Below, one piece after another: positions 3,627 to 30,731 of a stretch of DNA of 64,000 nucleotides (position 1 is its first letter; the number at the start of each line of letters is the position of its first letter). The notes under the pieces are model-generated. The model was given only the letters and a program-made list of their open reading frames with translations, did not search any database and was not told the origin of the DNA. The stretch comes from a virus. The stretch is from positions 62,001 to 126,000 of IMG/VR virus record IMGVR_UViG_3300042731_009106; one strand, given 5' to 3'. Position numbers and translations under genes: made by a program.

Positions 3627-4720
3627 GCAAAACATTAGATCAAATTAATAAATTCCTTTCCGACAAAGATAATAAAAAATACCACTTCAATGATTTCAAT
3701 GAAGATGAATATAAAATATCAAGTGGTAGTTTAAATCTGGATTTAGCCTTGGGTGGTGGACTTCCAGCTGGAGCCCATAGATTTACAGGAATTAACGAAG
3801 GCGGCAAAACTAGCTGTGCATTGACTGTAGCCAAAAACTTTCAAAGTCATTTCGGCAAAGATGGCATGGTTGTGATAGTAAAATCAGAAGGAAGGTTAAG
3901 TCCTGAAATGCTAAAGAGAACAGGAGTAGATCTTGATCCAGAAAAGTTTTTTATTCTTGATTGCAATATTTTTGAAAAAGTTTTTGAGTTTATTAGAGAC
4001 TTGGTTTTTAATAACGAAGATAACAAAAAATATATGTTCATTATTGATAGTGTTGATGCTCTTTGCAGAATGAATGATATTGACAAACCATTTAGTGAAA
4101 GCGAACAAGTGGCTGGTGGAGCATTAGTCACATCTGTTTTTCTTAAAAAGATGGTTTTACCTATCACTAAAATGGGGCACATGATGATACTAACTTCTCA
4201 AGTTAGAGTAGAAGTTGCCGCAAATCCTTATGCAGCAAGAGGTGGTCCAAAGGTTAAGCAAGCTGGTGGTAATGCAATTAAGCATTATGCTAATTTCATT
4301 TTAGAGTTTGAAGAAAGGTATACTAATGACATTATGTGGGAAAATGCATCTGCCTCTAAGATCGAAGATAAAGGTAATCCCATAGGTCATTATTGCAAGA
4401 TTCGTTTTCGCAAAAGTGTCAACGAAAAGACTGGAGCTCAAGTTCGCTATCCTATTCGCTACGGTAGAACAGATGGTAATTCTGTATGGCTAGAGAAAGA
4501 AATTATAGACATGATGTATTTATGGGGTTATATCGAAAAGAAAGGTGCATGGATATCTTTCGATGAAGATATTCTAAAAGATTTATCTGATAAAAAAATT
4601 GAGTGTCCAGAAAAAATACAAGGTGATAATAAATTACTTGAATTAATAGAAACTAATGGAAGTTTAAAAGACTATTTTTACAATACTATACATGACATCT
4701 TCCAAAATGAAAAAGAATAA
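3623..4720 (+). CDS. recA: RecA/UvsX-type recombinase
   Basis: ATP-dependent strand-exchange protein, 365 aa. Walker A is GINEGGKT at about residues 56-63, preceded by the RecA-type lead-in with SLNLDLALGGGLP. Walker B is MFIIDSVDA at about 138-146. A region like RecA loops L1/L2 follows (Ala/Gly-rich, ending GGNAIKHYAN). It is somewhat longer than bacterial RecA, with a charged C-terminal tail. It presumably supports recombination-dependent replication and repair with the helicase and polymerase downstream. The Walker A has Asn-Glu-Gly where Pro-Glu-Ser-Ser is usual in RecA, as is common in phage homologues. Confidence 0.93.
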   Translation: MSKTLDQINKFLSDKDNKKYHFNDFNEDEYKISSGSLNLDLALGGGLPAGAHRFTGINEGGKTSCALTVAKNFQSHFGKDGMVVIVKSEGRLSPEMLKRTGVDLDPEKFFILDCNIFEKVFEFIRDLVFNNEDNKKYMFIIDSVDALCRMNDIDKPFSESEQVAGGALVTSVFLKKMVLPITKMGHMMILTSQVRVEVAANPYAARGGPKVKQAGGNAIKHYANFILEFEERYTNDIMWENASASKIEDKGNPIGHYCKIRFRKSVNEKTGAQVRYPIRYGRTDGNSVWLEKEIIDMMYLWGYIEKKGAWISFDEDILKDLSDKKIECPEKIQGDNKLLELIETNGSLKDYFYNTIHDIFQNEKE

Positions 4721-5966
4721 AATCTTTATTTCGATAGCTAGTTATCGAGATCCCCAGCTCATACCAACTATAGAAAATTGTATAAAGAATGCTAAAAATC
4801 CTAAAAATTTAGTGTTTGGAATCTTAAGGCAATACAATAAAAAAGATGGCTTTGATGATCTTTCTGACTATAAGAGTAAAACAAACTTCAGGATTAAAGA
4901 AATGCTCTCTCACAAGAGCAAAGGGGTATGCCATTCCAGATACCAAATACAAACTATGTATGATGGAGAAGAATTTTATTTACAGTTAGACTCACATCAC
5001 AGATTCATTAAAGATTGGGATACTAAACTAAAACAAACATTATCTTCCCTTAAGAAGTCGGGCAGCAAAAAACCTATACTAACAGGTTACTTGCCTTCTT
5101 TCGATCCAGATGTAGAAGGAGAAGCTAGATTAAACGATGTATGGCGTCAATACATTGATCGCTTTCAACCCGAAGGTCCAATCTTTATTTTTCCCGAAAC
5201 TATACCTAATTGGCAAAGAAAAAAGCCTGAAAAAGCTAGGTTCCTTAGTGGTCATTTTATTTTTAGCTATGGAGACTTTGTGACTAATGTTCCATATGAT
5301 CCAAAACTTTATTTCCATGGAGAAGAAAGCTCTTTAGCTGTCAGGGCATATACTCATGGCTATGATTTGTATCATTTGCATAGACCTTGGGTTTGGCATC
5401 ATTATGGCAGAGATAATTATGCTAGACACTGGGATGATGAATCAGTTTGGGGCGACTTAAACAAACAAAGCTTTCTTCGCTATAAAACTTTACTTGGAAT
5501 GGATGGTATTCGCAGAAAGCATATACCAAAATACGGTCTGGGTAAAGTTAGGTCACTTAGTGATTATGAATCTTATGCTGGTATTAGATTTAAAGATCGT
5601 CAAATCCATCAAGCTGCATTCGACAGAACCCCACCCCCAGTTAAACTAAAAAAGGGTGAAAAAATAGAAGATAAATTTGTTTCTCAATTTAAGTATTGCA
5701 TAGATCTACATAAACCAAATTTCCCAGAAAATGATTATGATGTTTGGGCAATTGCATTCAAAGATAAGAATGGTAATGAAATGATTAGGTTGGATGCTGG
5801 GGAAGAAGAAATAGCCAGACTTCAAAACGAAAATCCTAAAGATGATTTTATAAGGCTATGGAGACAGTTTGAAACTTCAGAGCTTCCATCTAGTTGGTTG
5901 ATCTGGCCTCACAGTAAAAGTAAGGACTGGATGAATATTGTAGAAGGGACTGTGCCAGTATTATGA
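4707..5966 (+). CDS. GT60-like (Skp1 GlcNAc-transferase type) glycosyltransferase
   Basis: About 419 aa. The N-terminus (ISIASYRDPQLIPTI) and the stretch LQLDSHHRF with the DSHH metal-site-like motif at about 95-98 match the GlcNAc family (PF11397), known from UDP-GlcNAc:hydroxyproline transferases. Later motifs SGHFIF and FHGEE fit as well. The start is uncertain: the ATG at 4707 begins just before the family's first strand, while an ATG at 4692 would add five residues. Either way it overlaps the recA end, so glycan cluster A is coupled to recA. A paralogue follows directly. Confidence 0.85.
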   Translation: MKKNKIFISIASYRDPQLIPTIENCIKNAKNPKNLVFGILRQYNKKDGFDDLSDYKSKTNFRIKEMLSHKSKGVCHSRYQIQTMYDGEEFYLQLDSHHRFIKDWDTKLKQTLSSLKKSGSKKPILTGYLPSFDPDVEGEARLNDVWRQYIDRFQPEGPIFIFPETIPNWQRKKPEKARFLSGHFIFSYGDFVTNVPYDPKLYFHGEESSLAVRAYTHGYDLYHLHRPWVWHHYGRDNYARHWDDESVWGDLNKQSFLRYKTLLGMDGIRRKHIPKYGLGKVRSLSDYESYAGIRFKDRQIHQAAFDRTPPPVKLKKGEKIEDKFVSQFKYCIDLHKPNFPENDYDVWAIAFKDKNGNEMIRLDAGEEEIARLQNENPKDDFIRLWRQFETSELPSSWLIWPHSKSKDWMNIVEGTVPVL

Positions 5967-7225
5967 GCTCTATATATGTACAAATAGCTGCCTACAGAGA
6001 TCCTGATGTAGTTAATACATTAAAAGATATAGTTAAGCAGTCAAGCAAAAAACATAAAATTGTAATCAATATAATTGATCAATATTCTCCAGATGATAAT
6101 TTTTACGATATTGAAAAAACATTTAAACATTTAAAGTGCAATGCCTTTGCTAGCTTAAAATATAAAAAAATTCTTTATACAGAAACTAAAGGGGTTTGCT
6201 GGGTTAGGCATTTATTAAACGAGGATTATTCTGGGGAAGACTTCACCCTCCAATTAGACTCTCATCATAGGTTTGAAAAAAATTGGGATACGACTTTAAT
6301 ATCTATGCTGGATTCACTTTGTGATGCTGGTTACAAAAAACCTTTACTTACAACATACTGCCCCGGATATCTAACTAGCGACGAAACAAAATATCCATTT
6401 GCAACACAAATGGATTTTGACAGATTCACCCCAGAAGGCGCAGTATTTTTTAGCTCTGGGATCATCCCAAACTGGGAAAACAAAAAGCTTCCAGTACCAT
6501 CTAGATTCATTAGTGGTCATATGATTTTCGTGCAAGGATCTTTCTGCAAAGAAGTTCCATATGATCCTTATTATTTATTCCACGGAGAAGAAATTAATCT
6601 CACGGTACGAGCTTATACTCATGGTTATGATTTATTCCATCCACATAAGCCTGTAGTTTATCACGAATATTCTCGAAGTCATCGCCCTAAAAAGTGCTGG
6701 GATGACGACCCACAATGGGGTCTTAAAAATGATAAATCTCACTTACGTAACAGAAAATTCTTTCAAATGGATGGAGAGAAAAAAGATATAGACTTCGGAA
6801 AATATGATCTCGGAACAGTTAGAACGATAGAGCAGTACGAAGAATATAGCGGCGTTAGAATGAGAAGTCGCTCAGTACAACAATATACTATTGACTTGCA
6901 TCACGCACCTAACCCAGTTCATATGTCTGATGATGATTATGAATCTTCTTTTTTACCTATCTTTAAACACTGTATTGATTTGTCTTATGAGATCGTACCC
7001 TTAAATGATTATACTTTTTGGTGCGTAGCCTTCAAAGATAAAGACGGTAATGATATTTACAGGCAAGATGCTAACAAAGAAGAAATTCATAAAATGAAAA
7101 ATGACCCTGATGGTTATTGTAAATTATGGAGATCTTTTCCCTCTCCACAGAAACCTCATAGCTGGCTAGTATGGCCTCACAGCGAAAGCGAAGGTTGGCT
7201 TGAACCAATTACAGGCTACCTTTAA
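5963..7225 (+). CDS. GT60-like glycosyltransferase (paralogue)
   Basis: 420 aa, clearly paralogous to the preceding gene. It has the same opening (IAAYRDPDVVNTLKDIV), LQLDSHHRF, SGHMIFVQGSF, FHGEE and a conserved C-terminal tail ending SWLVWPHSES. It is a predicted GT-A enzyme that transfers a sugar, probably GlcNAc-like, from a nucleotide donor. It overlaps its neighbours by 4 nt and 1 nt. Tandem duplication followed by divergence suggests two related linkages or acceptors. Confidence 0.85.
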   Translation: MSSIYVQIAAYRDPDVVNTLKDIVKQSSKKHKIVINIIDQYSPDDNFYDIEKTFKHLKCNAFASLKYKKILYTETKGVCWVRHLLNEDYSGEDFTLQLDSHHRFEKNWDTTLISMLDSLCDAGYKKPLLTTYCPGYLTSDETKYPFATQMDFDRFTPEGAVFFSSGIIPNWENKKLPVPSRFISGHMIFVQGSFCKEVPYDPYYLFHGEEINLTVRAYTHGYDLFHPHKPVVYHEYSRSHRPKKCWDDDPQWGLKNDKSHLRNRKFFQMDGEKKDIDFGKYDLGTVRTIEQYEEYSGVRMRSRSVQQYTIDLHHAPNPVHMSDDDYESSFLPIFKHCIDLSYEIVPLNDYTFWCVAFKDKDGNDIYRQDANKEEIHKMKNDPDGYCKLWRSFPSPQKPHSWLVWPHSESEGWLEPITGYL

Positions 7226-19747: not shown

Positions 19748-19776
19748 TTGACTTATTCCTATTATAATGCTATCAT
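19748..19776 (+). promoter_or_regulatory. Class 1 sigma70-type promoter for polymerase unit
   Basis: TTGACT 19748-19753, 17-bp spacer, TATCAT 19771-19776. The seventh base after the box is the A of the ATG at 19783, predicting a fully leaderless mRNA. Confidence 0.7.
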
Positions 19777-19782
19777 GTAAAG

Positions 19783-20532
19783 ATGATCGCATTATTCAAG
19801 AGTCACTACTCTATAGGTAAATCAATTCTGACCCTAGACCACCCAGATAAAGTTAAGGAAGGTGGTTCAGATAGTATATTTAATATAACCCAAGGAGCCA
19901 ACCAAGTTGTTTTAGTAGAAGATAGCTTGGTTGGTTTTTTGCAAGCCCAAAAAACTGCTGAGTCGTTGGGTGTTCAATTGATCTTTGGTTTAAAAATGAA
20001 CTGCTCCCATGAAGCCGTTGATGATGATGGTCAATATTGCTCGCATAAGATCATCATCTTCGCTAAGAATGATAAAGGTTGCAAGCTATTAAATTCCATA
20101 TACTCAGATGCATTTTGCAACAACGAAGGGACATTAATTCTCTCAAAACTAAAAAACATGTGGGACGAAGATGCTCTTTCTATGGCTGTGCCTTTTTACG
20201 ATTCATTCATATTTATGAATAGTATGCATTTTTGTAACTGCATACCAGATTTTAGTTATTGCAAACCAACTTTTTTCATTGAAAGCAATGATTTACCTTT
20301 TGATGATTTCATTAAAAACAAAGTTATCGACTACTGTAAAACATTTAATTATGACCATGAAATGACCAAGTCTATTTATTACAAGAACCGCTCTGACTTT
20401 GAGGCTTACCAAACCTACAAATGTATTTGTAGTAAAAAATTCAAACAAAGAACTTTAGCAGTTCCAAATTTCGATCACTTAGGTAGTCCAGAATTTTGCT
20501 ACGAAAGTTTTCTAGAACATCAAAATAATTAA
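19783..20532 (+). CDS. Stand-alone PHP domain of DNA polymerase III alpha
   Basis: 249 aa. It follows the order of the DnaE N-terminal PHP domain: FKSHYSIGKSIL for the normal HxH strand, VVLVEDSLVGFLQAQKTAESLGVQLIFGLKM for the LTDHG...G-x-E region, and IIIFAKNDKGCKLLNSIYSDAF for the AkNexGyxNLxxLxS helix. Only one His of the HxH metal site remains, and other ligands are not obvious, so PHP metal hydrolysis is probably lost. It likely binds the polymerase encoded 0.8 kb downstream as a structural module. The leaderless start is set by the promoter. Confidence 0.78.
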   Translation: MIALFKSHYSIGKSILTLDHPDKVKEGGSDSIFNITQGANQVVLVEDSLVGFLQAQKTAESLGVQLIFGLKMNCSHEAVDDDGQYCSHKIIIFAKNDKGCKLLNSIYSDAFCNNEGTLILSKLKNMWDEDALSMAVPFYDSFIFMNSMHFCNCIPDFSYCKPTFFIESNDLPFDDFIKNKVIDYCKTFNYDHEMTKSIYYKNRSDFEAYQTYKCICSKKFKQRTLAVPNFDHLGSPEFCYESFLEHQNN

Positions 20533-20534
20533 TC

Positions 20535-20711
20535 ATGAATAAAAAAACAGCCATCAAAATAAAAAGAGCAATGAACTATTCTGATACTGCAGAACAAAAA
20601 AGAGTTTACAATGCCATCAAAAAACAGTATAATGGTCTCTCTGCTAAAGAAAAGAATCAATTAATTATAGACTTAGAAAAAACTTTTAATAATGAACGAG
20701 AATCTTCTTAG
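20535..20711 (+). CDS. Hypothetical small basic protein (58 aa)
   Basis: Open frame from ATG at 20535, 2 nt after the PHP gene stop, to TAG at 20709-20711, overlapping the exonuclease start by 20 nt. The product is Lys-rich and predicted helical, with YSDTAEQKRVYNAIKKQYN in the middle. It is not recognised, but the tight spacing inside the polymerase operon and the phage-like codon use support a real gene. Confidence 0.6.
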   Translation: MNKKTAIKIKRAMNYSDTAEQKRVYNAIKKQYNGLSAKEKNQLIIDLEKTFNNERESS

Positions 20712-21333
20712 ATTTAACAAAAAACAAAAATATATATTTTTCGATTTTGAAACTTGCTGCCTAAACCTAGGTTCTCTCGACAATAAGCCTTGGCAATTAG
20801 GTTTTATTGTAATTGAGAATGGTAGAGTTGTTAAGAAAAAAGACTATTGGATACAATGGCCTGACTTAAAAATGACAGCAGCAGCAGCTAAAATGACAGG
20901 GTGGACAAAAGCAAAATACGACAAGAAAGCTACAGATGCAAAATCTATCCTTGCCGAATTTGAACATTACCTATACAATAAAGATTATATAAATGTTGGC
21001 CACAACATTCTTGGTTTTGATATTTATGTTCATGGTATATACAGAAGGTGCTTGGGCCTTAAACCTGATTATTCTTATGTTTATAGATCTATTGATACCT
21101 TGTGTTTAGCTAAAGCTATTAAAAATGACATAAAATTTGATAGAGATGATAATCTTTTTAGCTGGCAATACAGACTCAACAACATGATTGACAGAAAGTC
21201 TAAGAAAAAATTAATAGATTTATGCAAAGATTATGATATTAAAATTGATGAAAACAAATTGCATGATGCAATGTACGACATCGAACAAAATTACGAAGTA
21301 TTTAAAAAAATGTTATGGGAGGTAAATATATAA
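20692..21333 (+). CDS. DnaQ-like DEDDh 3'-5' exonuclease
   Basis: 213 aa. Exo I FFDFETCC supplies Asp18 and Glu20. Exo II is VGHNILGFD at about 102-110. Exo III KLHDAMYDIEQN supplies the His and Asp of the DEDDh class. It is the likely proofreading subunit for the DnaE-like polymerase encoded immediately downstream, an arrangement equivalent to the bacterial epsilon-alpha pair. The end overlaps the polymerase start. Confidence 0.88.
   Translation: MNENLLRFNKKQKYIFFDFETCCLNLGSLDNKPWQLGFIVIENGRVVKKKDYWIQWPDLKMTAAAAKMTGWTKAKYDKKATDAKSILAEFEHYLYNKDYINVGHNILGFDIYVHGIYRRCLGLKPDYSYVYRSIDTLCLAKAIKNDIKFDRDDNLFSWQYRLNNMIDRKSKKKLIDLCKDYDIKIDENKLHDAMYDIEQNYEVFKKMLWEVNI
21317..21322 (+). promoter_or_regulatory. 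Shine-Dalgarno site of dnaE
   Basis: GGGAGG, with 10 nt to the ATG at 21333. This is one of very few purine-rich SD-like sites in the window. It favours the ATG at 21333, which overlaps the exonuclease stop as TAATG, over the in-frame ATG at 21315. Confidence 0.55.
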
Positions 21334-23897
21334 TGAAATCATCTTTCCTTGACAGTTTTACTAAGTATGATGACTATGCTCCAGCTGGAGTTTTACTTCC
21401 AGAAATTGAAGTAGAAAACAAATATTACAGTCAACTTTCTATTGATTCCAATAGCTCTAATTACGATTTCCTCAGAGCTTTATGCATGCAAGGAGTCAAA
21501 GCTAAAGGTATAGATAAGCTACCAAACAAAAAAGAATATTATTCTCGCACCAAAATGGAGCTAGAAATATTTAAAGATTTAGGATTTGTTGATTATATTT
21601 TATTGAATTGGGATATATTAAAATATTGCCATGAAAATGATATACCTACAGGCCCCGGTCGTGGTTCGGCTGCAGGTTCTTTAGTTTTGTTTTTAATTGA
21701 TGTCACAAAAGTAGACCCAATCAAATATGATTTATTCTTTGAGAGATTTGTTTCTAAGAGTCGAGCCAGAAAAATTGAAAAAAATGGCACCACATATTTA
21801 GACGGAAGTTTATTGGCTGACGTAGATAATGATATAGCTTATGAGCACAGGCAAAAAGTTATCGACTATATCGAACAAAAACACCCCGGTCGTACCGCCA
21901 ACATTCTCACTCTTAACACTTTAAGTGGTAAGCTATGCATTAAAGAATGCGGTAAAATCGTTGGGGAGTATTCTGAGCAAGACGTGAATTTAGTCAGCTC
22001 CTACATACCTAAAAAATTCGGCAAAGTAGCGCCGCTAGATACAGCTATCGAGGAAAGTCAAAAGTTTGCCGATTGGGTAAATGATAATGAGCGAGTTTTT
22101 AAAATTGCTAGGCAATTAGAAAGCTTAAACAAAAACACAGGTGTTCACCCATCAGGTATAGCAATCTCTCACTCAAAAATTTCAGACATTTGCCCAATCC
22201 AAAAAACAAATGATGGATCTTTTGTTACAGGTTATGACATGAATTGGGTTTCAGAATTGATGGTTAAGTTTGATATTTTAGGCTTAAGAACATTGAGTGT
22301 TATTTATGATGTATGCAATTCTATAAATATGGATGTGTATGATATTGATCTAGATGATCCATCTTTATATTCTGCTTTTGAAAATCTAGATAACCCTCAT
22401 GGATTATTTCAAATTGAAGCGGATACTAATTTTAGAGTATGCAAGAAAATTAAGCCACGCAGCTTAGAGGAGTTAAGTGCTGTTGTCGCAATAGCTAGAC
22501 CCGGAGCTCTTGAGTTTGCGGATCGCTATGCAGATTATGTATCTACAGGAGAATCTCAAAGTGTTCATGAATTCTTTGACGATGTTCTTTCTTATACAGG
22601 TGGTATACCATTATATCAAGAGCAACTTATGAAGATGGCTGTAAAAGTTGGATTCACTCTAGATGAATCAGAACAACTTCGCAGAATTGTAGGCAAGAAG
22701 AAGGTTGATCAAATGCCAGCATGGCAAAAAAAGATAGAAGACACAATTGAAAAAAACGAATTACCAACTGAAGTTGGAGACATCTTATGGAGTGTTGCAG
22801 AAGATAGTGCCAACTATTCTTTCAACAAGTCTCACTCTATATCATATGCAACCTTAGCTGCATGGACTACTTATTTAAAGTTCAAACATCCCAAACAATT
22901 CTTCTTAAGCTTGCTTAAGATGTCTCAATTTGAACCAAATCCACAAGATGAAATATCAAAAATAAGCAGAGAACTACCCTTCTTTGATATAACTCTCTTG
23001 CCCCCTAACTTAATTAAATCTAAATTTGATTTTGTTATTGATAAAAATAACATTCGCTTTGGTTTAAATAGCATCAAAGGAGTAAGCGAAAAAAGTTTAA
23101 AGTCTTTAGAGGAATTCAGAGATACAGAAAACTCAAACAAATACGATGTATTTCTATCAGCGAAGCAAGCAGGCTTAAACATAGGAGTCTTATCGGCCCT
23201 CATACAAGCTGGGGCATTGAGTGAAGACGAAGAACTTAGCAGGCCAAGACTAGTCCTAGAAGCTCAAGCCTTCAATCTTCTAACTGACAGAGAAAAACGA
23301 AACTTTATTGCCCTTGGTTCTAAATACAACTATGACATATTGAATTCTATTCATGCTGCTAAGACTGAGTCTCTAGTTGCTGATGACAACAAGCCAGTAA
23401 TGAAAGAGTCTCGATTCACTACCTTTAAAAAGAAGTATGATAAGTACAAAGAAATATATGAGCAAAATGTTAAATACGAAAACTTTGCTAATTGGTATTT
23501 TGAAAAAAAATTACTTGGGTATAGCTACTCTCACAAGCTAAAAGAAGTATTTAAGAACGAGAGAAATTCATTAAAAGATTCTTTATATTACCGCTCAATG
23601 GAGAACAATGATAAAGCTAAGTTCATTGGCGTGGTAGAGGACTCATTCAAAAGCACTAGCGCTAATGGCAACAAGTATATTAAAATTCTTTTAAGTGACG
23701 AATTAGGCAACATACCAGCAATCATGGTAGATTCACGCAGGCAAGCTACATGCACTCAATATTTAGAAAAAAGCAAAGCTCCAGACAAAGACAATATCGT
23801 TGTCCTTACAGGAAGAAAAGGTGATGATATTTTGTTTATTGATGATCTTTCTATTGTTGACGAAAAAATATGCATGAAGTTAGCAGACTTAAAATAA
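21333..23897 (+). CDS. dnaE: DNA polymerase III alpha (DnaE-type), PHP-less
   Basis: 854 aa C-family polymerase core. It starts just before the palm, with TGPGRGSAAGSLVLFLIDVTKVDP at about 106-129. The first two catalytic Asp are in ADVDND (about 162-167). The third is Asp314 in KFDILGLRTL. The fingers include SHSISYATLAAWTTYLKFKHP, and a C-terminal OB-like domain begins AKFIGVVEDSF. The PHP domain found at the start of bacterial DnaE is missing and instead lies in the separate gene at 19783. About 18 extra residues sit between the FERF motif and the DxD motif. Confidence 0.92.
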   Translation: MKSSFLDSFTKYDDYAPAGVLLPEIEVENKYYSQLSIDSNSSNYDFLRALCMQGVKAKGIDKLPNKKEYYSRTKMELEIFKDLGFVDYILLNWDILKYCHENDIPTGPGRGSAAGSLVLFLIDVTKVDPIKYDLFFERFVSKSRARKIEKNGTTYLDGSLLADVDNDIAYEHRQKVIDYIEQKHPGRTANILTLNTLSGKLCIKECGKIVGEYSEQDVNLVSSYIPKKFGKVAPLDTAIEESQKFADWVNDNERVFKIARQLESLNKNTGVHPSGIAISHSKISDICPIQKTNDGSFVTGYDMNWVSELMVKFDILGLRTLSVIYDVCNSINMDVYDIDLDDPSLYSAFENLDNPHGLFQIEADTNFRVCKKIKPRSLEELSAVVAIARPGALEFADRYADYVSTGESQSVHEFFDDVLSYTGGIPLYQEQLMKMAVKVGFTLDESEQLRRIVGKKKVDQMPAWQKKIEDTIEKNELPTEVGDILWSVAEDSANYSFNKSHSISYATLAAWTTYLKFKHPKQFFLSLLKMSQFEPNPQDEISKISRELPFFDITLLPPNLIKSKFDFVIDKNNIRFGLNSIKGVSEKSLKSLEEFRDTENSNKYDVFLSAKQAGLNIGVLSALIQAGALSEDEELSRPRLVLEAQAFNLLTDREKRNFIALGSKYNYDILNSIHAAKTESLVADDNKPVMKESRFTTFKKKYDKYKEIYEQNVKYENFANWYFEKKLLGYSYSHKLKEVFKNERNSLKDSLYYRSMENNDKAKFIGVVEDSFKSTSANGNKYIKILLSDELGNIPAIMVDSRRQATCTQYLEKSKAPDKDNIVVLTGRKGDDILFIDDLSIVDEKICMKLADLK

Positions 23898-23915: not shown

Positions 23916-26309
23916 ATGCAAGCCAACTTCACTCCTAGATGTCAAGAAATTTTAGCTTTAGCTAAAAAGCTAGCCGAAAAGTTCAACAACCCAGAAGTTA
24001 CCGTTGAGCATGTCTTTCTTTCTTTTTTAAAGATTGACTCTTTTTTATTTCCACGTATAGAGCAAGAGATACAAATTGATCTTGAAGCTTTAGTTCAGTC
24101 CGTCGTCGAATCTCTCGCCAACAAATCCCAAGAAAATATAGAAAAAGTTAGCTTCGGTGAAGATGTAAAGCAATGCCTAGACTTAGCCTACCAAACATCT
24201 AACTCCAAAAGCCATACTTACATTAGTGTCGAGCACTTGTTTTTTGCATTACTAAATGAGCCAAACTCTAATATTATAGATTATTTCATTGCGCATGACA
24301 TAGATATTTTAAAGGTAGATGATTTCTTACAAGATTACTTAGAGAACAGTCAGTCAAGAGACAATATAACATTTACTTATAGTAATGAAAATCCTATGTC
24401 AGCTTTTGGATCGCAGTCTCAAGGTATAGAGGCTTATAGTGTTGACTTAAATAAGTTAGCTAAAGAAGGTGAATTCAACTTTATATCCGCAAACATGGAT
24501 TATGTCCATGCTTTAGAAGAAACCTTATGCCGTAAAACAAAATCATGCGCCTTACTTATTGGTGATCCGGGTATTGGTAAAACTGCCATTGTGGAATACT
24601 TGGCAAAAAGAATTACAAGTATGACCACCAATGACTATTTATCTAATAAAAAAATTCTAGCGGTAGACCTTCCCTCTATGGTTGCTGGAACAAAATATAG
24701 AGGTCAATTTGAAGAAAGATTAAAAACTTTTATAGATGCAGTAAAACAAGAAAAAAACATTATTCTTTTTATAGATGAAATACATACTATAGTTGGTGCT
24801 GGTAATTCTGAGGGAGCTTTAGATGCGGCTAACATCCTAAAACCTTATATTGCACGTGGAGAATTAACTTGCATCGGGGCAACAACTTATGAAGAATACA
24901 AAAAGTCTTTTGCCAAAGACCCTGCTCTTAGACGTAGGTTTAATAATATAAAAATTTCAGAACCTTCAGAAGGAGAAGCTTTAGTTATCTTAAAAAACTT
25001 AGCGCCAAGTTATGAAGCTTTTCATGGTGTCACCTATTCTGAAGATAGCTTAAATCAAGCCATTGTTTTATCTAAAAAATTTATTATAGATAGAAAGTTG
25101 CCTGATAAAGCTATTGATTTATTAGATCAAGCTGGCTCAAAATTAAAGATCAGTCATTTTCAAAAGCCTAAAATGGCAAAGCAAATGGAAAAAGTTTTAA
25201 TTGCTGAAGATGTAGAAACTTCAATAAAAGAGAACGTATTCAAAACATACAAAGAAACTTTAGATAAATGGCAAAAAAGAAAACTATCTAAAATGCCGAC
25301 AGTTCAATCAAATCATATTAATGAAATTATATCTGATATGTTTGACATCCCTATTGAATCCCTAAAAGAGACTAAGTCTCAAAAATTAATACAGCTTGAA
25401 CCCAGAATTCAAAAAGATGTTATTGGTCAAGATAGAGCCATCTCTAGATTAGTTAACAGTTTATTTAAAACTCATGCAGGCCTACAAGATCCTAATAGAC
25501 CTATTGGTAGTTTTTTGTTTTTAGGTAAAACTGGCACAGGTAAAACTCTTACTTCTAAATCTTTAGCTAAACATTATTTCGGTTCAGATAAAAAATTAAT
25601 TTATTTTGACATGAGTGAGTTTAGTGAATCTACATCTGTTAGTAAATTTTCTGGTTCTTCACCCGGTTACGTTGGCTACGAAAAAGGCGGCATACTAACC
25701 GAGAAAGTTAAAAGAGATCCACATTGTGTTCTACTTTTTGATGAGATTGAAAAAGCTCACCCAATAGTACTACAGTCCTTACTTCAAATATTAGAAGAAG
25801 GCAGAATGACAGACAATTCTGGAGAAGAAACATCTTTTAAAAATACTATTATTATTTTAACAAGTAATCTTGGAGCAGAACTAGTAGACAAAAATCCATC
25901 TGTAGGATTCATGAGGCAACAAGAGTCTAATTATGACAAGATTTTTGACGAGGCTAAACGTAGATTAAGTCCTGAACTAGTTAATAGATTTGATGGTATT
26001 ATATTATTCAATAACTTTAGTGATGAAAGTCTATCTCAAATCATTAATATTGAATTAAATAAAGTTAAAAATAAATTAAAATCAAAAGGAATTAAAATAA
26101 CTTTCAAACCGAAAGTTAAGAAACGTATTCTAGATCAAACTATAGCTGAAAAACTTGGTGGCAGACCTATTCGCAGAATTATTCAAAATGATATTGAAGT
26201 TGAGCTTGCTAAATTTATTATAATGAATAACCCAGAAAGTGTAAATATTGATTACATAGACGATCAATTTACCTGCCATGTACCACGCAAGACATCCAAG
26301 AAGACCTAG
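23916..26309 (+). CDS. clpC: ClpC/ClpA-like AAA+ unfoldase
   Basis: 797 aa. Two Clp-N repeats occupy about residues 1-145. AAA1 has Walker A GDPGIGKT at about 216-223 and Walker B IILFIDEIH. A short linker replaces the long ClpB middle domain. AAA2 has GKTGTGKT and VLLFDEIEKAHP. In AAA2 the tripeptide Val-Gly-Phe at 663-665 sits where ClpA/ClpC carry their [LIV]-G-[FL] ClpP-docking loop, so this is a protease-type unfoldase rather than a ClpB disaggregase. No ClpP is in the window, so host ClpP would be the partner. The phage tmRNA lies 1.4 kb downstream. Confidence 0.88.
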   Translation: MQANFTPRCQEILALAKKLAEKFNNPEVTVEHVFLSFLKIDSFLFPRIEQEIQIDLEALVQSVVESLANKSQENIEKVSFGEDVKQCLDLAYQTSNSKSHTYISVEHLFFALLNEPNSNIIDYFIAHDIDILKVDDFLQDYLENSQSRDNITFTYSNENPMSAFGSQSQGIEAYSVDLNKLAKEGEFNFISANMDYVHALEETLCRKTKSCALLIGDPGIGKTAIVEYLAKRITSMTTNDYLSNKKILAVDLPSMVAGTKYRGQFEERLKTFIDAVKQEKNIILFIDEIHTIVGAGNSEGALDAANILKPYIARGELTCIGATTYEEYKKSFAKDPALRRRFNNIKISEPSEGEALVILKNLAPSYEAFHGVTYSEDSLNQAIVLSKKFIIDRKLPDKAIDLLDQAGSKLKISHFQKPKMAKQMEKVLIAEDVETSIKENVFKTYKETLDKWQKRKLSKMPTVQSNHINEIISDMFDIPIESLKETKSQKLIQLEPRIQKDVIGQDRAISRLVNSLFKTHAGLQDPNRPIGSFLFLGKTGTGKTLTSKSLAKHYFGSDKKLIYFDMSEFSESTSVSKFSGSSPGYVGYEKGGILTEKVKRDPHCVLLFDEIEKAHPIVLQSLLQILEEGRMTDNSGEETSFKNTIIILTSNLGAELVDKNPSVGFMRQQESNYDKIFDEAKRRLSPELVNRFDGIILFNNFSDESLSQIINIELNKVKNKLKSKGIKITFKPKVKKRILDQTIAEKLGGRPIRRIIQNDIEVELAKFIIMNNPESVNIDYIDDQFTCHVPRKTSKKT

Positions 26310-27674: not shown

Positions 27675-28038
27675 GGGCGTGTACTGGATTCGATTTAAAT
27701 TGAATGGGTATACTGCAAGTAGGAGTTGCATCTGGCTCCTAAAAAAGGTGCAAAAATCTACATGGCAATAAGTCACGTGTTAAAGCTTTCGCCTTCAAAA
27801 AGCGCGAGCTTGCTTTAGCAGCATAAGTCTGCTACCTCATAACCTTTGACGCAGATAAAGGGATTATGGGGTCATTAATCTGCAAAACAGATAAAAGTTT
27901 ATCCATATCATAAACTGTAAATAATTGAAATGGTTAGTTGGATGTTTATATCATAACTATAAAAAAAATAAACTAAACTTGTAGATGTATATTACGGAAG
28001 ATTTAAAGACGCGGGTTCAACTCCCGCCACGTCCACCA
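27675..28038 (+). ncRNA. ssrA: tmRNA (ssrA)
   Basis: The 5' end GGGCGTG pairs with CACGTCC at the 3' end, followed by ACCA; CCA is encoded. The 3' part has the tRNA T-arm GCGGGTTCAACTCCCGC. After the 5' acceptor comes the tmRNA-typical CTGGATTCGA. A clear pseudoknot PK1 is formed by TGCAA/TTGCA (27714-27718 with 27726-27730) and AGGAG/CTCCT (27721-27725 with 27736-27740). The tag frame ends with KKRELALAA and TAA at 27824-27826; counted from CGT at 27776 it would be RVKAFAFKKRELALAA, but the resume codon is not certain. The terminal LAA is a typical Clp degron. Confidence 0.95.
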
Positions 28039-29618: not shown

Positions 29619-30731
29619 ATGAATGTTCAATACGGATTAATTAGTACCTCAGAACTCCTTAAAGAGAGGGATCCAGATAGTTCTTATACCTTTTCAGGTA
29701 TAACTGTCAGAAATTTTAACGCCGCCAAAGAAAGCTCAGGAATCGAAGGAGCTTTATCTGAACTCTCTAATCGTATTCATCATAATTTGCGATTAACCGA
29801 AAATATCATTGAGTTCTTACCGAAAGTTAAAATCACTCATTACCGTATTAGTAATTCTTTGTTCAGTATACTTTCAGATTTCTCGGATGGTGTTGCTGTT
29901 ACAATTCAGGATCTCCCTGACTCTCAAGAAATTATTGCTAAAATACGAGAAATAGGATTTCTTGCTAGACAAAACAATATCACATTATCTGTCTATCCAG
30001 ATTCAACTACTAGTTTGACAAGCACTGACGAGCAAGCTATCGACAGAGCTGTTAAAGAACTTAATTTTCATAGCTGGTTTCTTGATACTGCTGGATTTCC
30101 CTCAAATCCATCTAGCCCAATTATCATAAAGCCTTTTGCGCAACCTAGCTCTAGTAGTCATGAAGCAGCAGTTGAGTTTGTAAAAAGTTTTTACGAAAGC
30201 TATAAAAAACTTGATAGAGAAACTCAAAGTAGAATAGTAATACAGAATGAAGATGAAGGTTTTTGGAATGCGATTAATTTATTTAAATATTTTCATGTTT
30301 ATTTAAACGAAAAATTCAAAGAAGGCATGGTATTAAGTTACCACAACTATGCCGATCAAATGAATCCGGGCATGTTGGGTTCTGATGCCGTTTCGATTGA
30401 TGTTAATGTTGGAGCTTTTCATGAAACTTGGAAAGGTGTTGTGCCGATTTTCTTATGGTCAGAAAAAGATCGTGGGAATCCACAAGTTTCATCAGAATAT
30501 CTATCTGAACCAATTCCAGATTTTAATTATCAAATTAAATGGGAATGCGATGTGAGAAAAAGGGATAAGGCTATTGTTAAATTTACAATGCCTGAGGACG
30601 AAGATAAAGTTACTGAAGAAGTCATAATGACTATAACTAAAAATAAATACAAAAGGTCTAGCGACGCATCAAAAGCCTTTAATGCACTATATGACAAATC
30701 CTCCAATGCCCAATCGCCAAACCAAATATAA
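29619..30731 (+). CDS. uvdE: UV-damage endonuclease (UvdE-like)
   Basis: 370 aa, TIM-barrel UVDE family (PF03851) by order of motifs. N-terminal QYGLIS; HHNLRLTENIIEFLPK; then VKITHYRISNSLF; a metal-site strand VIQNEDEGFWNAINLF in place of the family's lviENDD; and VLSYHNYADQMNPG for the His-containing strand. It nicks DNA 5' of UV photoproducts, a light-damage repair step suited to sunlit waters. Several family residues are changed, so divergence is substantial. The C-terminal 70 residues are Lys/Glu-rich. Confidence 0.75.
   Translation: MNVQYGLISTSELLKERDPDSSYTFSGITVRNFNAAKESSGIEGALSELSNRIHHNLRLTENIIEFLPKVKITHYRISNSLFSILSDFSDGVAVTIQDLPDSQEIIAKIREIGFLARQNNITLSVYPDSTTSLTSTDEQAIDRAVKELNFHSWFLDTAGFPSNPSSPIIIKPFAQPSSSSHEAAVEFVKSFYESYKKLDRETQSRIVIQNEDEGFWNAINLFKYFHVYLNEKFKEGMVLSYHNYADQMNPGMLGSDAVSIDVNVGAFHETWKGVVPIFLWSEKDRGNPQVSSEYLSEPIPDFNYQIKWECDVRKRDKAIVKFTMPEDEDKVTEEVIMTITKNKYKRSSDASKAFNALYDKSSNAQSPNQI

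What the first reader, a model, noticed from the sequence alone, without database searches (positions are those of the whole stretch)
19783..23897. Polymerase III alpha split into separate PHP and polymerase genes with a proofreading exonuclease between them
Seen: a 249-aa PHP-like protein, a 58-aa protein, a DEDDh exonuclease and an 854-aa DnaE core lacking its PHP domain, in one unit from a leaderless promoter. The PHP part has only one His of the HxH site. Known: in bacteria PHP is fused at the N-terminus of DnaE and binds epsilon. Inference: a three- or four-subunit phage replicase.
Basis: partly seen in the sequence, partly recalled or inferred. Interest (0 to 1): 0.8.

Follow-up and report, generated by a model that had tools for sequence, protein, structure and literature searches.

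The report
Phage DNA polymerase split in three
A large family of uncultivated viruses of microbes, much of it apparently marine, makes its bacterial-style DNA-copying enzyme as separate pieces (a burnt-out 'PHP' support domain, a proofreading enzyme and the polymerase itself) instead of carrying the support domain on the polymerase, which suggests that this supposedly built-in domain can work as a subunit of its own.

Summary
One DnaE-type Pol III alpha is encoded in two genes, cut exactly between PHP and palm, with a DEDDh exonuclease gene between them. The 249-aa protein is a DnaE PHP domain: its AlphaFold model (pLDDT 89) matches only bacterial DnaE PHP domains in the PDB. The 854-aa protein is a DnaE without PHP, with an intact catalytic triad. 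In 164 of 164 loci carrying all three genes (110 distinct PHP+pol pairs) the order is PHP-exo-pol on one strand, and none is fused. Correction: the PHP keeps none of the nine metal ligands, not one His of HxH; fixed residues such as Lys89 and Pro137 replace them, so it is almost certainly not a nuclease. A TTGAC-N16-18-TAnnAT promoter ends 5-9 nt before the PHP start codon in 48 of 58 relatives (about 2% by chance), which supports a leaderless transcript. The 58-aa protein is not a fixed partner. The split itself is not unique: Rhodococcus phage Trina and Microbacterium phage Pharpay also encode PHP and polymerase separately, by independent splits and with PHP sites intact (9/9). New are the dead PHP, the interposed exonuclease, the conserved leaderless promoter and the size of the lineage. 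Assembly of the parts into one enzyme is inferred.

The parts
19748..19776 (+). Conserved sigma70-type promoter TTGACT-N17-TATCAT; the -10 ends 6 nt before the PHP ATG, so the transcript should be leaderless
   Evidence: 10/12 match, TG before the -10; equivalent site in 48/58 relatives, against about 2% of random positions
19783..20532 (+). Stand-alone PHP domain of DnaE (249 aa), metal site fully degenerate
20535..20711 (+). 58-aa basic protein of unknown function; present in only part of the lineage and at different places, probably not a core part
20692..21333 (+). DEDDh 3'-5' exonuclease (213 aa; D18 E20 D110 H191 D196 invariant), catalytic domain only, no epsilon-type C-terminal tail
   Evidence: Pfam RNase_T 7.6e-13
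21317..21322 (+). GGGAGG, Shine-Dalgarno-like site 10 nt before the pol ATG, inside the end of exo
   Evidence: sequence
21333..23897 (+). PHP-less DnaE polymerase (854 aa): palm, fingers, HhH and OB; D163, D165, D314 invariant; ATG overlaps the exo stop (TAATG)

Best explanation
This is a naturally split DNA polymerase III alpha. The PHP domain of an ancestral DnaE became its own gene and protein. It lost all metal ligands and now acts only as a structural subunit that docks non-covalently on the palm side of the PHP-less polymerase. The 3'-5' proofreading is done by the DEDDh exonuclease encoded between the two. Shown by computation: the exact split between PHP and palm, the degenerate PHP site, the intact polymerase and exonuclease sites, the invariant gene order, the start-stop overlap of exo and pol, and the conserved promoter of leaderless type in front of PHP. 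Inferred: that PHP, exo and pol assemble into a three-subunit core that replicates the phage genome, that PHP is needed for polymerase stability, and that the exonuclease is held by the PHP or the polymerase through a contact unlike that of E. coli epsilon.
For: Two non-overlapping parts of one DnaE profile match the two genes, and the same two-part match is found in 9 of 11 large records of the lineage, with no other DnaE match in any of the 11. The PHP model (pLDDT 88.9, pTM 0.87) matches only DnaE PHP domains (2hnh E=6e-10; 4iqj TM 0.76). The pol model matches DnaE (2hpi 1.5e-36) and has an OB fold. 0 of 9 ligands of the HHDHEH[C/H]DH motif are kept, and the replacements are conserved: K89 and P137 in 58/58, K6 in 56/58. 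The DEDDh and polymerase triad residues are invariant. PHP is present in 76/76 pol loci whose contig reaches far enough upstream; 164/164 loci have the order PHP<exo<pol and none is fused. In bacteria, loss of PHP ligands goes with a separate exonuclease, and the dead PHP is a structural element that stabilises Pol III (PMC3666897). Phage phiKTN6 shows the same link in fused form: degenerate PHP (RRADEKEDP) with an adjacent exonuclease gene.
Against: The exonuclease profile matches E. coli epsilon only up to residue 178 of 243 and has 6 residues left, so the known PHP-binding tail of epsilon is missing. No sliding clamp (PF02768) was found in the record or in 10 large relatives, and no T4-type clamp (PF09116) in the record itself, so how the enzyme becomes processive is unknown. 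G000 is probably incomplete.
Confidence: 0.76

Rival explanations
1. The PHP protein no longer belongs to the replicase. It has been freed for another role, for example regulating the host or phage polymerase, and its place beside pol is a relic.
For: It has its own conserved promoter, other genes are often inserted between it and exo, and it diverges faster than pol (mean distance 0.51 against 0.37).
Against: It is retained in 76/76 checkable pol loci, always upstream of exo-pol on the same strand, and keeps the whole DnaE PHP fold. A PHP domain is stated to be strictly conserved in bacterial replicative polymerases (PMC3666897).
Confidence: 0.1
2. The PHP is still a nuclease that uses a rebuilt metal site.
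For: Conserved acidic and His residues remain (E46 58/58, D47 56/58, H8 43/58, H88 46/58).
Against: All nine known ligand positions are replaced, several by Lys (K6, K13, K/R71, K89); an intact DEDDh exonuclease is encoded next door; restoring metal binding to the E. coli PHP did not restore nuclease activity (section heading in PMC3666897).
Confidence: 0.05
3. The two halves are joined again after expression, by an intron or a split intein.
For: HNH interruptions of phage DnaE exist (Bacillus phage KLEB27-3), and split-intein DnaE is known in cyanobacteria (own knowledge).
Against: Neither protein carries intein-sized extra ends: PHP ends at profile position 291 and pol starts at 326. There is no intron in Rfam at this place, and a whole exonuclease gene, in some relatives also a GMP reductase, lies between.
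Confidence: 0.02
4. Sequencing or assembly error broke one gene.
For: None found.
Against: 110 distinct PHP+pol pairs from independent contigs show the same arrangement.
Confidence: 0.005

Closest known systems
Split DnaE of Rhodococcus phage Trina (gp101 303 aa + gp102 956 aa; also Peregrin, Weasels2, Grayson by annotation) and Microbacterium phage Pharpay (gp55 345 aa + gp56 767 aa)
   Same: PHP and polymerase are separate adjacent genes, cut at the PHP/palm boundary
   Different: No exonuclease gene between them; PHP sites intact (HHDHEHCDH 9/9); independent splits by the tree
Pbunavirus DnaE (Pseudomonas phage phiKTN6)
   Same: DEDDh-type exonuclease gene directly before the polymerase gene; degenerate PHP site
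   Different: PHP still fused to the polymerase (1035 aa)
E. coli Pol III core (alpha-epsilon-theta)
   Same: Dead PHP plus a separate DEDDh exonuclease; DnaE palm, fingers, HhH and OB
   Different: PHP fused in E. coli; E. coli PHP keeps part of the site (RHDFDHGDR) against 0/9 here; epsilon has a PHP-binding tail, exo here does not
DnaE split inside the polymerase part (Rossellomorea phage phiT1 gp20/gp18; Bacillus phage KLEB27-3 with HNH)
   Same: Phage DnaE on two genes
   Different: Cut within the polymerase, PHP stays attached to the N-terminal half
Marine jumbo phage cluster PGC_A (PMC9123017)
   Same: Marine large phages marked by PF07733
   Different: The split or PHP is not mentioned in the passages read; whether this lineage falls in that cluster was not tested

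Membership tests
DNA polymerase III alpha, DnaE type | C-family palm with three catalytic Asp, fingers, HhH | tested here: met
   PF07733 3.6e-60, PF17657 8.6e-31, HHH_6 4.5e-13; D163, D165, D314 invariant in 77 sequences
DNA polymerase III alpha, DnaE type | OB domain after the HhH | tested here: met
   Model matches DnaE over about 900 columns and OB-fold proteins; strands at 761-841
DNA polymerase III alpha, DnaE type | N-terminal PHP domain in the same polypeptide | tested here: not met
   pol starts at position 326 of PHROG_405; PHP is a separate gene in 164/164 loci
DNA polymerase III alpha, DnaE type | Internal clamp-binding motif (Q-x-x-L-F type) | tested here: inconclusive
   Looked for by eye only; an invariant E-A-Q-x-F-N-x-L-T stretch (643-651) lies in the right region but is not a canonical motif
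PHP domain of C-family polymerases | PHP fold | tested here: met
   All 18 PDB hits at E<=1e-5 are DnaE; PF02811 in 41/58 members, best 2.3e-8
Metal-dependent PHP nuclease | HHDHEH[C/H]DH ligand set | tested here: not met
   0 of 9, while Moorella, Circinus, Trina and Pharpay have 9/9
DEDDh proofreading exonuclease (epsilon/DnaQ) | DEDDh catalytic residues | tested here: met
   RNase_T 7.6e-13; D18, E20, D110, H191, D196 invariant
DEDDh proofreading exonuclease (epsilon/DnaQ) | C-terminal tail binding clamp and PHP as in E. coli epsilon | tested here: not met
   Profile positions 169-207 align to epsilon 140-178 of 243; only 6 residues follow
Three-subunit replicase core | Physical PHP-exo-pol complex | not testable with these tools
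   Complex prediction and biochemistry not available

The most novel reading that the evidence does not exclude
The dead PHP is an exchangeable, separately dosed subunit: made first from its own leaderless transcript, it binds and releases the polymerase and exonuclease and so switches the enzyme between synthesis and editing, a regulated replicase unlike any bacterial Pol III.
Probability: 0.1. Interest if true: 0.8.

Novelty: new variant of a known kind. Interest (0 to 1): 0.55.

Why it matters
The PHP domain is described as strictly conserved in bacterial replicative polymerases and as an internal stabiliser of Pol III (PMC3666897). At least three independent phage lineages have detached it, one of them with the site wholly dead and hundreds of members. 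This gives natural two-piece systems to ask what PHP does: add it back in trans, measure polymerase stability, exonuclease recruitment and fidelity. The contrast of live detached PHP (Trina, Pharpay, no exonuclease gene seen beside the pair) with dead detached PHP (here, exonuclease beside it) separates the nuclease role from the structural one. It also warns annotators that a 250-aa 'hypothetical protein' before a short DnaE may be half of the replicase.

Tried and rejected
Frameshift or assembly error: rejected by 110 distinct PHP+pol pairs. Second full-length DnaE elsewhere: none in G000 or 10 large relatives. Intron or intein: rejected. 58-aa protein as subunit: not supported. Clamp loader: a PHROG 'clamp loader' hit in six larger relatives turned out, in the three examined, to carry a RuvB-type C-terminal domain, so it is not counted. 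Isolate relatives: pol no better than about 33% identity among the best hits listed. Agathobaculum phage AB434P3 was first thought split but its PHP is in the 910-aa polymerase gene. Literature for a separate PHP gene: several searches, nothing found in the held library; the 2011 survey of viral replicases is not held. Host from MAG bins: Flavobacteriaceae, Halobacteriovorax, Verrucomicrobiales, Woesebacteria and Lokiarchaeota bins disagree, so no host is claimed.

Full report
What is there. The window is bases 62001-126000 of a 139,273-base IMG/VR virus record. Bases 19783-23897 hold four + strand genes: a 249-aa protein, a 58-aa protein, a 213-aa DEDDh exonuclease and an 854-aa polymerase. 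Junctions are a 2-base gap (PHP to 58-aa), a 20-base overlap (58-aa to exo) and a 1-base overlap TAATG (exo to pol), with GGGAGG ten bases before the pol ATG. So pol most likely starts at 21333 (854 aa) and is translationally coupled to exo. In relatives the exo-pol junction is mostly an overlap. Upstream lie a DnaB-type helicase, a primase and a PD-(D/E)XK nuclease; downstream a Clp-type ATPase.

The 249-aa protein is a DnaE PHP domain. Single-sequence Pfam evidence is weak (E=0.0019), but PHROG_405, a 1190-position DnaE family, matches the two genes at complementary places: 72-291 for the 249-aa protein and 326-1082 for pol. An alignment of 58 relatives (A1) gives PF02811 in 41 members, best 2.3e-8, and a colinear profile-profile match to DnaE PHP domains, E 9.5e-12. 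The AlphaFold model (pLDDT 88.9, pTM 0.87) has 18 PDB hits at E<=1e-5, all of them bacterial DnaE. The pol model (pLDDT 83) matches DnaE from the palm to the OB fold.

The PHP site is dead. The published active-site signature is HHDHEH[C/H]DH (PMC12926913). Phage DnaEs with PHP, both fused (Moorella MTATph1, Circinus, Yaboi) and split (Trina, Pharpay), have it 9/9, and E. coli has RHDFDHGDR. In the window family the positions read L/K/K/D/(R,K)/K/P/S/Y, with K89 and P137 in 58 of 58 and K6 in 56 of 58. The replacement is itself conserved, as expected of a structural part under selection rather than of decay.

The exonuclease and polymerase are alive. D18, E20, D110, H191 and D196 of exo and D163, D165 and D314 of pol are invariant. 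This fits the rule that degenerate PHP goes with a separate exonuclease (PMC3666897). Pseudomonas phage phiKTN6 shows it within phages: degenerate PHP (RRADEKEDP), exonuclease gene directly before dnaE. One thing does not fit E. coli: exo ends where the epsilon catalytic domain ends and lacks the tail that binds PHP. If exo is held in the complex, it is held some other way.

The arrangement is a property of a lineage. Scans of IMG/VR found at least 391 stretches encoding a relative of pol and 575 encoding a relative of PHP (lower bounds). Eight loci in bacterial or archaeal genome bins also carry it, probably phage contigs. In the loci fetched, all 164 with the three genes have PHP, exo, pol in that order on one strand; no fused gene was seen; these hold 110 distinct PHP+pol pairs. 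Of 80 pol-anchored loci, 76 have PHP and the other four end before it. Other genes are often inserted between PHP and exo: a GMP reductase/IMPDH-like gene, a SET-domain gene, an HNH-like gene. This rules out a frameshift.

The promoter. TTGACT-N17-TATCAT ends 6 bases before the PHP ATG. The number of promoter-like sites in the region is not above chance (20 found, 21.9 expected). But 48 of 58 relatives, as far as 39% identity, have a match of at least 9/12 with the -10 ending 5-9 bases before ATG (modes 6 and 7), against 4/36 for pol starts, 4/42 for exo starts and about 2% of random positions. With the usual spacing the transcript starts at the A of ATG. Leaderless translation of PHP is therefore well supported by conservation, though not measured.

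The 58-aa protein. Homologues (MNKK...KIKKIINYD...) lie just before exo in part of the lineage and about 1 kb downstream of the Clp gene in others; they were not detected in many. It is not a constant part of the replicase.

Independent splits. In cultivated phages, Trina (303+956 aa; Peregrin, Weasels2 and Grayson alike by annotation) and Pharpay (345+767 aa) have separate PHP and pol genes. A tree of 32 polymerases needs three changes of state, with the present lineage as one clade (SH-aLRT 99) and Trina and Pharpay nested among fused relatives (quick method, no bootstrap). So PHP has come off at least three times. I found no paper describing it, in a library that lacks most subscription journals. 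The key survey of viral replicases (NAR 2011) was not held, so prior description cannot be excluded.

Mechanism. Best reading (0.76): PHP, exo and pol form the core replicase, with PHP as a catalytically dead structural subunit in trans and exo as proofreader. Shown: split, dead and live sites, linkage, promoter. Inferred: assembly and dependence. Open: how exo is held, and processivity, as no bacterial-type sliding clamp was recognised in the record or ten large relatives and the apparent clamp loader is RuvB-like in the three cases examined. The pol model is least confident around catalytic residues 160-163 and 305-308, which might reflect the missing PHP support, but this is speculation.

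Verdict. The split as such has precedents in sequenced phages; the dead-PHP, interposed-exonuclease, leaderless form and its size are new to my search.

Noticed in passing
window 27675-28038 (+): A complete tmRNA (Rfam RF00023, 133 bits, CCA end) that ARAGORN missed; one frame gives a tag ending ...KRELALAA*. It lies shortly after the phage's own Clp-type ATPase gene (23916-26309).
   Followed up: partly
L003 4254-5189, L033 4400-5359 and others: A GMP reductase/IMPDH-family gene (PF00478 1e-56) sits between the PHP and exonuclease genes in several relatives; a SET-domain gene in others, e.g. L012.
   Followed up: partly
L044 5251-8583 (same contig L163) and L077 216-3263: pol has an extra N-terminal domain of about 250 or 160 aa of unknown kind, where other relatives have a separate inserted gene between exo and pol.
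   Followed up: no
L176 9614-11395 and 11417-12598: The polymerase itself is cut into 593 + 393 aa in a contig from a Verrucomicrobiales bin; a second split, an insertion or an error.
   Followed up: no
window 36924, 53560, 59788: Other gene starts with a TTGAnn-N16/17-TAnnnT site ending 6-7 nt before ATG; leaderless transcription may be general in this phage.
   Followed up: no
window 29619-30731 (+): UV-damage endonuclease UvdE-like gene (PF03851 3e-15).
   Followed up: no
window 4692-7225 (+): Two adjacent GlcNAc-type glycosyltransferases of the same PHROG family (phrog_24687), apparently a duplication.
   Followed up: no
L199 4285-5220 (-), L200 3507-4454 (-), L201 3533-4486 (+): RuvB-like AAA+ ATPase (AAA plus RuvB_C) in larger relatives, labelled 'clamp loader' by PHROGs.
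   Followed up: partly
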